Origin: Candidatus Lindowbacteria bacterium RIFCSPLOWO2_12_FULL_62_27
GTDB lineage: Bacteria; Lindowbacteria; 2-12-FULL-62-27
NCBI GenBank assembly: GCA_001784175.1
Contig: MFPR01000004.1
Location: 310,001 to 374,000 of the forward strand
Length of the DNA: 64,000 nucleotides
Direction: 5' to 3'
The notes under the pieces are model-generated. The model did no database searches. It saw nothing but the letters and a program-made list of their open reading frames with translations, and was not told the DNA's origin. Below are positions 4,973-64,000 of this stretch, piece after piece. A program made the translations under genes and the position numbers. Positions within the stretch are counted from its first letter, which is position 1; each line of letters starts with the position of its first letter.

Positions 4973-5231
4973 ACCTGTGCCTCCCGAAAAAAAAGTCCAG
5001 GGTGCCGTAGGAAATCGAGTATTGAACCGCGATGTCCAGGTGGGATTCCCGCGAATGCCACACTGGGCTTCCCTCACCCCCCGCATCTGTTTGGCGAACC
5101 CGAAGGCTCATCGTCAGATGATCGGAAGGGGGCCTGCCGGGCGGCGCCCGACGACGGAATCCCGTCCGATGCTTGTAGGCTCAATGACTGCGAGGACCTG
5201 ACGAGCACCCCAGACGCAATTGTCACCCCCT

Positions 5232-58951: not shown

Positions 58952-59008
58952 GGGGGGCAGACTATCATACCGGCCGGCGGAAAGTCAGCAGGTGGAGACG
59001 GGCGCAGA

Positions 59009-59045
59009 CCCTCTTTCATCCCCCTTGCAAAGGGGGGAAAGAGGG
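59009..59045. repeat. Perfect-stem hairpin repeat upstream of cimA
   Basis: CCCTCTTTC pairs with GAAAGAGGG, and inside it CCCCCTT pairs with AAGGGGG. Similar GC-rich palindromes are scattered between genes in many bacteria. It may end transcripts or be a REP-type unit. Confidence 0.6.
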
Positions 59046-59187
59046 GGGTGACCCGTTTTGATCGACCGGTTACCGCAGGTGGAATTCGGTCGGTCAACAG
59101 CGGAGAACATAGGCCACGAATAAAACCTTTACCGTATGGTGGATATTTGTGACATTCGAACCCATTCGTGTTATATCTTTTCCGCCT

Positions 59188-59349
59188 TCTACCGACTTTC
59201 AATTACCCACATTCCCCCTCTCCCGCCTCTGGCGGGAGAGGGTCGGGGTGAGGGTGGCCGCACGGCGCGTCGATACCCCCCTCACCCCTACCCTCTCCCC
59301 CCGCTTCGCGTGGGGAGAGGGGGTTTGTGGGTAATTGAAAGTTCTACCG
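59188..59349. mobile_element. MITE-like inverted-repeat element with 7-bp target duplication
   Basis: A 148-bp element (59195-59342) is bounded by perfect 16-bp terminal inverted repeats, ACTTTCAATTACCCAC and its complement. Direct repeats TCTACCG lie directly outside both ends. The interior is also self-complementary (GGGGTGAGGG with CCCTCACCCC, plus two local hairpins rich in CTCTCCC). The interior resembles CCCTCTCCC-type dispersed palindromes common in bacteria. It has no coding capacity. It lies 35 nt before the structured RNA of the Cas9-like locus. Confidence 0.7.
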
Positions 59350-59384
59350 ACCGCTCACACGCAGGTGAAAAAAACAGGTGACAC

Positions 59385-59592
59385 CGCCGGTTGCATGATT
59401 TATGATGCGGCTTCAAGGGTGAAAGAAGCCCAGACGCCGCCCAACAAGCGGCGTCATGTACGGCCCCGACTAGTCCTCGCCGTGCGTAACCACAGCGCCG
59501 GAGAATAGGTGTGGTCGGGCCCGCAGGCGGGTGTCGGCAACCCGCAAAGGGCAAGGGAGCGGCGCGCCGATAAGCCGAACGGAAGCGCCGCA
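59385..59592 (+). ncRNA. Candidate structured guide RNA (omega-RNA/HEARO-like) of the Cas9-like nuclease
   Basis: A gene-free stretch ending 10 nt before the nuclease ATG holds a chain of hairpins. They are GGCTTC/GAAGCC (59409-59430), GACGCCGC/GCGGCGTC with loop CCAACAA (59433-59455), a long arm closed by GGCCCCGAC and GTCGGGCC (59462-59521) with inner CACA/TGTG, GCGGGT/ACCCGC (59527-59545), and GCGGCGC/GCGCCGC (59559-59591). A structured RNA immediately 5' of a RuvC-HNH gene is the arrangement of IscB omega-RNAs, which carry the guide at their 5' end. Family membership is inferred from position and folding only; no sequence match was tested. Confidence 0.65.
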
Positions 59593-59602
59593 AATTGCAC
59601 TT

Positions 59603-62600
59603 ATGGCTACAGAATTGGAACAACGATTGAATGAGTTTTTGGATTCTCTCCGCCTCGGAATAGATTTCGGCGAAGATTATGGCGGCATTGCATTGGTGCA
59701 GGCCAATCGCGTCCTTCACGCCGAAACGTTCGTCGATTTTCATCAGGCGACACTGAAGGATCGACGGAGAAATCGCCGGGGTCGCCGCACCCGACATGCC
59801 AGGAAAATGCGCCTCGCGCGCCTTCGATCATGGATCCTACGCCAAAAACTTCCGGGTGGACAACGCCTCCCGGACCCGTACGGCGTCATGCATTGGCCTT
59901 TCAAAACGAAAAAGGGGCATACGATAAAAACAGGTCTTGCCTCGCGTCAGGACGGCAAGCGGACCATTATCCAGAAATGTAAGATCGGAACTGCCACGCC
60001 CGAGGAGTTTGTATGCTCTCTGACGCTTCTTTTTCAAAAACGCGGATTTGTGTGGGAGGGAAGCGATTTATGCGAACTGAGCGACCAAGAGCTCGCCGAA
60101 GAACTCATGACTGTTCGAATTACCGAAGCAGTCGCCGCGGCGATAAAAGAGGAAATTGAACGCAGAAAAAAAGAGCCGGAAGATAATAAAGAAGGGGAAA
60201 TCGAGAATCTGGAAACGGTGCTTTGCGATGCCGTCAAACGCGCGCGATCGCCACGAACTCCCGAACACCGGAGTATCGTCGAATCGGATCTCAAGGATAT
60301 CGTCGACGGGTGGACGCGCAAAAATTGTCCGCAGATGACGGACATGTGGAAAAAAGAATTATCATGTCTGTTGAACAAGCATGTTCGGCCGGCCAGATTT
60401 GAAAACCGCATTGTCGCCGGATGCTCGTGGTGCGGAAAAATGGTACCACGCAAATCCAAGGTTCGGGAGCTTGCATACAAAGTCGTCGTCAAAAATATTC
60501 GCGTTGAAGATTTCACCTCCCGCCAACCTCTCACTGCGCAGGAGGCCGAATATTTTTCTCAACTGTGGGTCGATAAAGAGGCGAAGCCGCCAGCGCGGAC
60601 GGCGATCGAGAATAAACTCAAAAAACTGAAAGCTAGTCCGAAAATGGCCAACCAATTGTACGAATTGCTTGCGCCATCCGAACCCAAGGGCCATACGAAC
60701 CTCTGTCAACAACATCTCGAGATGGCCGCACGCGGCGCGTTTATGTGCAACAGACACCATGCCATCTGTGAGAATAATAATGGCGACCATCAGACAATCG
60801 ATTCCGTCAAAGAAGGCCGCAAACGCGCCGGGCCTCGAAATCCCTGCCGGGAAGATCGTGATCGCCGAATGATTCGACGACTCGAACAAATCCTTTTTGA
60901 AACGCCGGGCAAGCCCGGCAAGCCCAGTCACAGCATACCACGATTGATTACCATAGAATTTCCAAAACCGAATACTGCTCAAACGGCCGGATGCCCCCAC
61001 TGCAAGGAGAAGTTATCGCTCGATGCTCGCGTCAGATGGAAAATGGCGCGTCCGATGAAACTTGAAGCTTCAAATGATTCCACTCCATTTTTTTGCCCCT
61101 CCTGCGCCGCCGGGATCAAAATCACTTTGTACAAAAAAATGCGTATTAAGGAAAAGGAGATTGTGCAAAAATATTCTCCCAAGGATACGGATGTGCTTGT
61201 GAGGAAAACCGCCGCAGGCGGGTTGAAAAAGTTGAAATATGACATGTATCTCAAGGAAACGGACGGAACATGCGTCTATTGCGGAACATCCATTGGGTCA
61301 GGGCAGATTGATCACATCTTTCCGCAGTCTCGAGGAGGGCCCAATATCGATTACAATCTCATCAGCTGTTGTCGGACATGCAATGGAAACCTGAAAAAAA
61401 ATAAAAGTCCGTGGGAGTGGTTCGGGAACATCGACCAACGCTGGAGAGAGTTTGAAGACCGGGTCAAAAAACTGCCGGCACCTCAACGAAAAAAGGCGAT
61501 TTTGCTTTCAAGAGAATCGGCGTATCCGGAGAATCCAACGGCGCTCGCCCGGGTTGGCGCCCGCACAAAAGAGTTTATCGGACGCATTAAGCAAATGCTT
61601 CTGGCCAACGGTGTGAAGGAAAATGAGATCGCAGATAATTACGAAAAAGACAAAATCGTTATCCAGACCATTGACGGCTGGATGACCAGCCGACTTCGCG
61701 GCTGCTGGAGGACTTTCCCGGACGGTACGGCAAATTTTCCACCCAAAAACGATGCCGATAAAAGAAACCACGCCCAAGATGCCGTATTGATTGCCGCTTG
61801 CCCGCCACACACATGGCGAGAAAGGATATTTACGTGGAAACCGGAAAATCCGTATTTTTCGGTATTACAGAAAATCGCGCCGCGTTGGAAAGACCATCAG
61901 GCGACGATGAAAATCTTGGGACGCTATTTTCCCCGATGGCATAATCAGAATTCTGATATTCAATTCGTCCATCAGCATAAAACTCAAAACGGCACCTCCT
62001 ACACAATGAGAGACACGGTCGAAAGCATCGATGTCGGCACCGACAAAAAGGGGGGCAGCATCGAAAGGATTTACTCCAAAAGTTTCCGGGATTTTTTTAG
62101 CCGGACCTTTAAGTCCCTCGGAATCAAGATGGCAATGAATGAAATCCCGAAACTCAAGAGTCAATGGTTGAATGAAAGGCGGGCTGCTTGGATGAAGAAG
62201 AATCCGGCAACGCCTGTGCCGAACCAGCGGGAACGTGCGTGGGAAGCATCATTTCCAAGACGTCTACAATTCGATATGGGCTATGGCGAAGACGTTGCGG
62301 AGGTCAACCCCAAGAATGGCCCGTCGAGATTTGTTCGCGCCCAGCCTGTCAACGATCGGATTGAAGTTTGGACGAACGACGTCAGACAGGCGCAGATTCG
62401 TACTGTGAAGAATCGGATTCTGTTTCGGCACATCCAGGACAATTCACCGCAGGGACGGACTCTTGAAAGAATTTTCCGGAGAAACGACATGATTCAGTTG
62501 GATGCGGTTCAAAAAAGGGGGAGAAAAGGAATAACTGGAAAAAGTTACGAGGCCGGTGAATATATGGTCGTTAAAATCGAGAAAGGCGGAAAATTTACGG

Positions 62601-62734
62601 CCGTTCCGGCGCACAGGGGGAAAGGCAGAGAAAATCAGCGCCAAGTTTCGCAGCGTGAAATCGCCAAACTGTGCGGGGTTTCGCTTTCTCCGAAAAGGCG
62701 GAAGCCATCCCGCTCAACGAGCGAAAGCGGTTGA
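59603..62734 (+). CDS. Cas9-like RuvC/HNH RNA-guided nuclease, stand-alone
   Basis: 1043 aa from ATG 59603 (24 more codons are open upstream but run into the RNA). RuvC-I LGIDFGED with Asp21; Arg-rich bridge helix 50-79; about 370 residues in the place of Cas9 REC lobes, with CSWC near 290; RuvC-II LITIEFPKP with Glu452; a four-Cys zinc ribbon (CPHC, CPSC); HNH with CVYCG, IDHIFPQSRGG (His571), Asn585 and CRTCNGN; RuvC-III NHAQDAVLI with His723 and Asp726; and a C-terminal 310 residues with FRRNDMIQL and GEYMVVKIE like the Cas9 WED/PI part. All catalytic residues are intact. Only 16 residues precede RuvC-I, too few for an IscB PLMP domain. No cas genes or array are present. GC content is lower than in flanking genes. 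Confidence 0.9.
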   Translation: MATELEQRLNEFLDSLRLGIDFGEDYGGIALVQANRVLHAETFVDFHQATLKDRRRNRRGRRTRHARKMRLARLRSWILRQKLPGGQRLPDPYGVMHWPFKTKKGHTIKTGLASRQDGKRTIIQKCKIGTATPEEFVCSLTLLFQKRGFVWEGSDLCELSDQELAEELMTVRITEAVAAAIKEEIERRKKEPEDNKEGEIENLETVLCDAVKRARSPRTPEHRSIVESDLKDIVDGWTRKNCPQMTDMWKKELSCLLNKHVRPARFENRIVAGCSWCGKMVPRKSKVRELAYKVVVKNIRVEDFTSRQPLTAQEAEYFSQLWVDKEAKPPARTAIENKLKKLKASPKMANQLYELLAPSEPKGHTNLCQQHLEMAARGAFMCNRHHAICENNNGDHQTIDSVKEGRKRAGPRNPCREDRDRRMIRRLEQILFETPGKPGKPSHSIPRLITIEFPKPNTAQTAGCPHCKEKLSLDARVRWKMARPMKLEASNDSTPFFCPSCAAGIKITLYKKMRIKEKEIVQKYSPKDTDVLVRKTAAGGLKKLKYDMYLKETDGTCVYCGTSIGSGQIDHIFPQSRGGPNIDYNLISCCRTCNGNLKKNKSPWEWFGNIDQRWREFEDRVKKLPAPQRKKAILLSRESAYPENPTALARVGARTKEFIGRIKQMLLANGVKENEIADNYEKDKIVIQTIDGWMTSRLRGCWRTFPDGTANFPPKNDADKRNHAQDAVLIAACPPHTWRERIFTWKPENPYFSVLQKIAPRWKDHQATMKILGRYFPRWHNQNSDIQFVHQHKTQNGTSYTMRDTVESIDVGTDKKGGSIERIYSKSFRDFFSRTFKSLGIKMAMNEIPKLKSQWLNERRAAWMKKNPATPVPNQRERAWEASFPRRLQFDMGYGEDVAEVNPKNGPSRFVRAQPVNDRIEVWTNDVRQAQIRTVKNRILFRHIQDNSPQGRTLERIFRRNDMIQLDAVQKRGRKGITGKSYEAGEYMVVKIEKGGKFTAVPAHRGKGRENQRQVSQREIAKLCGVSLSPKRRKPSRSTSESG

Positions 62735-62907: not shown

Positions 62908-63144
62908 ATGCCGACGGTCTTAAGAAAGGGGCCGTATCGTTTTTTCTTTTTTGCCGGTGATCGCGGCGAGCCGCCGCACGTTCACGTTGAGCGTGACAAC
63001 AAGGTCGCCAAGTTTTGGCTGGAACCGGTTCGGTTGTGCGGGAGCGGGGGATTCTCACGGGCTGAAATTCGCCGGATACTCAAGTTGGTGTTCGCTTATG
63101 CGAGTGAATTGAAGGAGGCGTGGCATGCGTACTTCAACGGTTAG
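62908..63144 (+). CDS. DUF4160 protein
   Basis: 78 aa with GGAGG 6 nt upstream. It shows the DUF4160 pattern: GPYRFFFFAGDRGEPPHVHVER near the front and AEIRRILKLVFAYASELKEAWHAYF at the end. DUF4160 genes are commonly paired with DUF2442 genes, as here, and the pair is suspected to be a toxin-antitoxin-like module; function is unproven. It overlaps the next gene by 20 nt. The 173 nt before it, after the Cas9-like gene, hold no gene. Confidence 0.88.
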   Translation: MPTVLRKGPYRFFFFAGDRGEPPHVHVERDNKVAKFWLEPVRLCGSGGFSRAEIRRILKLVFAYASELKEAWHAYFNG

Positions 63145-63454
63145 GACGGAAACGCCGCTTGCGGAAGACGTGACGCTGACGGCCGACACGATCCATGTCG
63201 ATTTGAGCGACGGCAGAACCATCTCCGCGCCGCTGGCGTGGTTTCCGAGGCTTCTAAACGCGTCGCAAAAGGAAAGAGACAACTGGCGGCTGATCGGCAA
63301 GGGACAGGGCCTGCATTGGGAAGACATCGACGAGGATATCAGCGTTGGGAATCTCCTGATGGGTCAGGCATCCGGCGAAAGTCAGCAGTCTTTCGAGAAG
63401 TGGCTCTCGGCAAGGAAACCCCGCCGTTCAACCTCACACGGACAGCGACGCTGA
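63125..63454 (+). CDS. DUF2442 protein
   Basis: 109 aa with AAGGAGG 6 nt upstream, inside the end of the DUF4160 gene. Family features are VTLTADTIHVDLSDGRTISAPL, WFPRLLNASQKERDNWRLI and GLHWEDIDEDISVGNLLMG. Partner of the DUF4160 protein; members of DUF2442 resemble small DNA-binding proteins. The C-terminal 25 residues are basic and probably disordered. Confidence 0.88.
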   Translation: MRTSTVRTETPLAEDVTLTADTIHVDLSDGRTISAPLAWFPRLLNASQKERDNWRLIGKGQGLHWEDIDEDISVGNLLMGQASGESQQSFEKWLSARKPRRSTSHGQRR

Positions 63455-63845: not shown

Positions 63846-64000
63846 TTGGTAAAGACTGTTTTTATCGCGCACGACTATTATGAAATAGGGGGCCGAAAAA
63901 GGAAGTACCGGCGTCTTATATCAACAGCCCTCAAACATACCGGCTTTCGTCCCACCTATGCCGATCACGCCATCCAAAACGTTTCAATATTGAAGGAAAT
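63846..64000 (+). CDS. Truncated gene, possible TIR-like or related effector (N-terminus only)
   Basis: 51 codons from TTG 63846 with GGCGG about 6 nt upstream; it runs off the window. The start VKTVFIAHDYYEIGGRKRKY, then RRLISTALKHTGFRPTYADH, has the strand-loop-helix-strand order of TIR-like nucleotide-binding domains. This is a weak resemblance and the rest is needed for any assignment. Confidence 0.5.
   Translation, partial: MVKTVFIAHDYYEIGGRKRKYRRLISTALKHTGFRPTYADHAIQNVSILKE

What the first reader, a model, noticed from the sequence alone, without database searches (positions are those of the whole stretch)
59385..59592. Multi-hairpin non-coding RNA candidate
Five stems of 6-9 bp follow each other with short linkers, far more than chance in a gene-free stretch. 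The last stem (GCGGCGC/GCGCCGC) closes 11 nt before the ATG. If it is an omega-RNA, the guide should lie at its 5' end, around 59350-59400, next to the MITE-like element, and would then match the DNA flanking the original insertion.
Basis: partly seen in the sequence, partly recalled or inferred. Interest (0 to 1): 0.85.

Follow-up and report, generated by a model that had tools for sequence, protein, structure and literature searches.

The report
TracrRNA of a type II-D CRISPR-Cas9d locus
The structured stretch in front of the nuclease gene is the helper RNA (tracrRNA) of a compact CRISPR-Cas9 immune system, not a transposon's guide RNA; a relative keeps its first 14 letters and promoter but carries a different RNA body and a different nuclease.

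Summary
The hairpins are real (z -3.2, 0 of 200 shuffles) and belong to a non-coding RNA, but it is not an omega-RNA. The gene behind it (59603-62734) is Cas9d: NCBIfam CRISPR_Cas9d 452 bits (cut-off 375), IscB only 56 (cut-off 175). Beyond the window's end lie cas1, cas2, cas4 and a CRISPR array of four identical 37-nt repeats. The first 14 nt of the repeat, read from the minus strand, are exactly complementary to 59412-59425, the only such site in the window (2,000 shuffles: at most 11 nt). A sigma-70 promoter (59378-59406) puts the predicted start on that anti-repeat, so the supposed 5' guide region is promoter. A relative in another genus shares promoter plus anti-repeat (95% over 63 nt), the identical repeat and cas1/2/4 (89-93% aa), but its Cas9d is only 28% identical and its tracrRNA body does not align. 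Effector and tracrRNA body were apparently exchanged together, with the junction just after the anti-repeat. The RNA is a new member of a known kind (II-D tracrRNA); the split inside the tracrRNA is the unusual part. No transcript data exist; covariation could not be tested because the only related body is not homologous.

The parts
59378..59406 (+). sigma-70 promoter of the tracrRNA: GTGACA (59378-59383), 17 nt, TATGAT (59401-59406); predicted start about 59413
   Evidence: the only promoter-like site in 59000-59800, 10 of 12 consensus letters; identical hexamers and spacing in the relative; shared block
59369..59431 (+). conserved head (promoter, anti-repeat and AAGCCC), 95% identical to L009:9397-9459 of another genus; similarity ends at 59431
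59412..59425 (+). anti-repeat TTCAAGGGTGAAAG, exactly complementary to the first 14 nt of the CRISPR repeat read on the minus strand (CTTTCACCCTTGAA)
   Evidence: (only 14-nt match in the window; none of 2,000 shuffles above 11 nt), cofold
59412..59596 (+). predicted tracrRNA; the 3' end is uncertain and no intrinsic terminator was found before cas9d
59428..59552 (+). tracrRNA body: GCCC (59428-59431) / GGGC (59549-59552) encloses hairpins 59433-59455, 59461-59523 and 59527-59545
   Evidence: minimum free energy and centroid
59559..59591 (+). terminal hairpin GCGGCGC/GCGCCGC of the tracrRNA, 11 nt before the cas9d start
59603..62734 (+). cas9d, 1043 aa, RuvC and HNH motifs intact (D21, E452, H571, N594, H723, D726)
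62908..63454 (+). DUF4160 and DUF2442 gene pair between cas9d and cas1; a DUF2442 relative lies in the related locus in different order. Probably passenger genes (inference)

Best explanation
The stretch is the tracrRNA gene of a complete type II-D CRISPR-Cas locus: tracrRNA, cas9d, two or more small genes, cas1, cas2, cas4, array. Transcription starts at about 59413 from the promoter at 59378-59406, so the RNA begins with the anti-repeat. The anti-repeat pairs over 14 bp with the 5' end of the repeat in each crRNA, next to the guide. The hairpin body 59428-59591 is the scaffold held by Cas9d, and the duplex with the guide directs Cas9d to DNA matching a spacer. The repeats carry promoter-like motifs on the minus strand (TTGAAT-16-TACAAT), so crRNAs are probably started one by one inside the array, as in type II-C. 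No terminator separates tracrRNA from cas9d, so the tracrRNA probably doubles as the 5' leader of the cas9d mRNA unless it is processed out. Shown by sequence: Cas9d identity, cas1/2/4, array, exact anti-repeat, conserved promoter. Inferred: transcription start, processing, guide loading, cleavage and immunity.
For: Cas9d 452 bits against cut-off 375, over the full model. Cas1, Cas2 and Cas4 hits. Four identical 37-nt repeats with spacers of 35, 34 and 37 nt. Exact 14-nt anti-repeat, unique in the window. Its partner is the guide-proximal end of the repeat, the type II geometry. Conserved sigma-70 promoter directly before it in two genera. Excess folding of the RNA. A relative in another genus (G001 contig C51) has the same head, repeat and overall gene order. 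Published II-D loci have tracrRNA and a cas1-cas2-cas4 module (PMC12669027; PMC9755519).
Against: No transcript data. Covariation could not be tested, because the only relative's body does not align and no closer relative was found in GTDB species genomes, IMG/VR, phages or plasmids. The body of the relative folds only weakly better than chance (z -1.5). No protospacer was found for the spacers (one weak hit).
Confidence: 0.95

Rival explanations
1. Omega-RNA (HEARO RNA) of an IscB-type transposon protein, with its guide at the 5' end next to the MITE-like element.
For: Same position and strand as an omega-RNA, directly before a RuvC/HNH protein with an RRXRR match. Cas9 is thought to derive from IscB (PMC11706934), so the arrangement may be inherited.
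Against: No HEARO match. IscB model 56 bits, cut-off 175. The proposed guide region is a conserved promoter. A matching CRISPR array is present.
Confidence: 0.01
2. A 5' leader of the cas9d mRNA that only regulates translation (riboswitch or autoregulatory leader) and is not loaded into Cas9d.
For: No terminator and no second promoter between 59412 and the ATG. In the relative the likely ribosome-binding GGAGGG lies inside the terminal hairpin.
Against: The exact anti-repeat and its position at the predicted start have no role in such a leader. No riboswitch family match above the gathering score; the Na+ riboswitch match has E 4.7. A leader role in addition to the tracrRNA role is not excluded.
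Confidence: 0.02
3. The tracrRNA is read from the minus strand and the array from the plus strand.
For: The repeat match itself does not give the strand. The minus strand folds equally well. The flank beside cas4 is conserved like a leader.
Against: No minus-strand promoter was found. The anti-repeat would pair with the guide-distal end of the repeat, against type II geometry. The promoter motif in every repeat points along the minus strand. In type II-C acquisition occurs at the last-transcribed repeat (PMC12080349), so a leader-like flank beside cas4 fits minus-strand transcription.
Confidence: 0.02

Closest known systems
Type II-D tracrRNA / Cas9d systems (Cas9d-MG34-1, MG102; PMC9755519, PMC11706934)
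   Same: Cas9d effector with RuvC, HNH and zinc-ribbon-like cysteine pairs, array and intergenic tracrRNA; large folded tracrRNA in which one helix encloses others after the repeat:anti-repeat helix
   Different: Protein is longer (1043 aa against 747). P1 is 14 bp against 17 in the MG34-1 sgRNA. cas1-cas2-cas4 are present, whereas one paper calls them lacking and the 2025 classification calls them shared. Details of the body fold were not comparable
Type II-C systems with repeat-embedded promoters (Neisseria meningitidis, Campylobacter jejuni; PMC12080349, PMC13187072)
   Same: Every repeat ends in TACAAT with a TTGAAT 16 nt before it. The end transcribed last lies next to the conserved, leader-like flank. 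In the relative the first-transcribed repeat has lost its tracrRNA-pairing half, in line with the mutated first repeats reported for II-C
   Different: Effector is Cas9d, cas4 is present, Cas1 scores better against I-C, I-D and I-G Cas1 models than against type II Cas1, and a T8 tract follows the pairing part of the repeat
IscB omega-RNA (HEARO, Rfam)
   Same: Position directly before the nuclease gene, same strand, multi-hairpin RNA
   Different: No family match, anti-repeat in place of a guide, CRISPR array present, protein not IscB

Membership tests
Type II-D CRISPR-Cas | Cas9d effector | tested here: met
   NF049971 452 bits, cut-off 375
Type II-D CRISPR-Cas | cas1, cas2, cas4 adaptation module (PMC12669027) | tested here: met
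Type II-D CRISPR-Cas | Cas1 within the monophyletic II-D Cas1 branch | not tested
   no II-D Cas1 reference set at hand
Type II-D CRISPR-Cas | CRISPR array nearby | tested here: met
   4 repeats at G000:C4:376516-376769
tracrRNA | anti-repeat complementary to the guide-proximal end of the repeat | tested here: met
   14 of 14 nt
tracrRNA | own promoter, transcribed | tested here: inconclusive
   conserved promoter found; transcription not testable here
tracrRNA | structured 3' body, conserved by covariation | tested here: inconclusive
   excess folding; the only relative's body does not align
tracrRNA | bound by Cas9d and needed for cleavage | not testable with these tools
   needs a cleavage assay
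IscB / omega-RNA | HEARO covariance model match | tested here: not met
IscB / omega-RNA | IscB protein model above cut-off | tested here: not met
   56 bits, cut-off 175
IscB / omega-RNA | N-terminal PLMP domain (own knowledge) | tested here: not met
   only 16 residues precede RuvC-I; the RRXRR model matches from position 48 on
IscB / omega-RNA | guide at the 5' end derived from the insertion flank | tested here: not met
   that region is a promoter conserved at two different genomic sites

The most novel reading that the evidence does not exclude
Two sister loci keep promoter, anti-repeat, CRISPR repeat, leader-like flank and cas1-cas2-cas4 (DNA 88-95% alike) but carry Cas9d proteins only 28% identical and tracrRNA bodies with no detectable similarity. 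The tracrRNA would thus be naturally split into a fixed 'address' half, bound to the array, and an exchangeable 'scaffold' half, which travels with the effector gene. The exchange junction lies within the RNA, just after the anti-repeat.
Probability: 0.75. Interest if true: 0.55.

Novelty: new member of a known kind. Interest (0 to 1): 0.4.

Why it matters
It corrects an omega-RNA call and adds a complete II-D locus, with tracrRNA, adaptation genes and array, from a sparsely sampled phylum (three genomes held). The sister locus suggests how Cas9 effectors can be replaced without losing stored spacers: swap the gene together with the RNA body and leave the anti-repeat. That bears on the finding that Cas9 and its dual RNA co-evolve and are exchangeable only between close relatives (PMC3936727). 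It also gives a natural pair for testing whether one array can serve two very different Cas9d proteins.

Tried and rejected
HEARO and every other Rfam family: nothing in the stretch above threshold; the microRNA-like hits lie in the GC-rich MITE palindrome and are chance. Relatives for covariation: scans of GTDB species genomes, IMG/VR, phages and plasmids gave only the one sister locus. Spacer targets: none credible (the 87% hit of the GC-rich spacer to a Streptomyces phage has E 0.1). AlphaFold model of Cas9d from two sequences: mean pLDDT 31, discarded. A terminator after the tracrRNA: none found. A published description of repeat-embedded promoters in type II-D: no paper found in the held library.

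Full report
What was checked. The finding names 59385-59592 as five or more stems before a gene. All the stems are there. The stretch folds better than shuffled copies (z -3.19, 0 of 200); trimmed to 59412-59596 it scores z -3.26 (0 of 200). Other pieces of this GC-rich window reach such values about one time in twenty, so folding by itself would not settle the matter.

What the neighbouring gene is. The open frame 59603-62734 (1043 aa) has RuvC and HNH motifs and scores 452 bits against NCBIfam's Cas9d model (cut-off 375), but only 56 against IscB (cut-off 175) and 81 against general Cas9 (cut-off 100). The best matches among solved structures are HNH-nuclease proteins mostly of about 750 aa, two of them of exactly the length of the published Cas9d-MG34-1, 747 aa (PMC11706934). 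The RRXRR model is matched only from position 48, and just 16 residues precede RuvC-I, so the N-terminal domain typical of IscB is missing.

The CRISPR locus. The window ends at 64000, but its contig continues. In window numbering, cas1 lies at 64309-65487, cas2 at 65492-65827, cas4 at 65824-66414 and a CRISPR array at 66516-66769. The array has four identical 37-nt repeats and three spacers of 35, 34 and 37 nt. Read on the minus strand the repeat is CTTTCACCCTTGAATTTTTTTTGAGCGGGACTACAAT.

The anti-repeat. TTCAAGGGTGAAAG at 59412-59425 is the exact complement of the first 14 nt of that repeat. It is the only 14-nt match in the window, the next best being 11 nt, and none of 2,000 shuffles of the upstream region exceeded 11 nt. 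Pairing with the guide-proximal end of the repeat is the type II geometry. Joint folding gives 14 bp of crRNA:tracrRNA helix followed by the multi-hairpin body.

The promoter. The only promoter-like site in 59000-59800 is GTGACA-17-TATGAT at 59378-59406. Its start point is predicted at about 59413 (seven bases after the -10 element, own knowledge), so the RNA begins with the anti-repeat. No intrinsic terminator separates the RNA from cas9d.

The sister locus. The window's phylum holds three genomes in the collection. One, of another genus of the same family (G001, contig C51), carries the same kind of locus; the third has neither head nor repeat. Between the two loci, cas1/2/4 are 92, 93 and 89% identical in protein and the cas1-to-array DNA is 88% identical. 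The repeat is identical. The head 59369-59431 is 95% identical over 63 nt and ends sharply. The two Cas9d proteins, however, are 28% identical, no DNA similarity is detectable between the genes even with sensitive settings, and the tracrRNA bodies do not align. Core genes of the two genomes are about 67-81% identical in DNA. The locus sits at different places: next to cimA/valS here, while in G001 those genes lie on another contig. In the third genome about 2 kb of other DNA lies between cimA and the gene that follows the array here, judged from its sequence to be lysC. The simplest reading is a mobile locus in which effector gene and tracrRNA body were replaced together and the anti-repeat stayed. 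Rapid divergence of Cas9d alone is an unlikely explanation for 28% beside 92% for Cas1.

How crRNAs are probably made. Every intact repeat carries TTGAAT-16-TACAAT on the minus strand, in both genomes. This is the arrangement reported for type II-C, where each repeat has a promoter and acquisition occurs at the last repeat (PMC12080349; PMC13187072). It fits here: the conserved, leader-like flank lies between cas4 and the array, next to the last-transcribed repeat. In G001 the first-transcribed repeat has lost its tracrRNA-pairing half, in line with the mutated first repeats which that literature describes. RNase III is present in all three genomes, so duplex processing is possible. These are inferences from sequence.

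Against the omega-RNA reading. No HEARO match; the protein is not IscB; the proposed guide region is a promoter conserved at two different genomic sites; and the guides are in the array. The nearby palindrome 59196-59341 is an unrelated small mobile repeat with a 9-bp target duplication, a 99% copy elsewhere and dozens of diverged copies. In position and strand the tracrRNA does sit where an omega-RNA would, which may reflect descent, but that was not tested.

Limits. There are no RNA data. No protospacer or PAM was found. The effector exchange rests on a single pair of genomes, the sister one a metagenome assembly; both loci lie on single contigs with coherent gene order, which argues against an assembly artefact but does not exclude it.

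Noticed in passing
window 59196-59341; flanks 59187-59195 and 59342-59350: 146-bp MITE-like element with inverted ends CTTTCAATTACCCAC and a 9-bp target duplication TTCTACCGA; a 99% copy at G000:C6:21050-21195 has its own duplication GTTCACAGA, and dozens of diverged partial copies exist.
   Followed up: partly
L006 4517-4770 (G000:C4:376516-376769) and L009 15996-16153: Each CRISPR repeat holds a minus-strand promoter motif and, after the tracrRNA-pairing part, a run of eight T; each crRNA could be its own small transcription unit.
   Followed up: partly
L030 5460-12005 (G000:C6): A second CRISPR effector in the same genome: Cas12b (1510 aa, 960 bits) behind a Cas4-Cas1 fusion and a HerA-like ATPase gene.
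   Followed up: no
L011 1157-5830 (G001:C122): The sister genome has a second, different Cas9 with cas1 and an array with another repeat.
   Followed up: no
window 62908-63454 and 63530-64279 (the latter runs past the window end): DUF4160/DUF2442 pair and a further block between cas9d and cas1; the sister locus holds related blocks in a different order.
   Followed up: partly
L009 9530-9567: In the sister locus the likely ribosome-binding GGAGGG of cas9d is inside the last tracrRNA hairpin, so RNA folding could affect cas9d translation.
   Followed up: no
window 4990-5219 (minus): 6S RNA, 58 bits.
   Followed up: no
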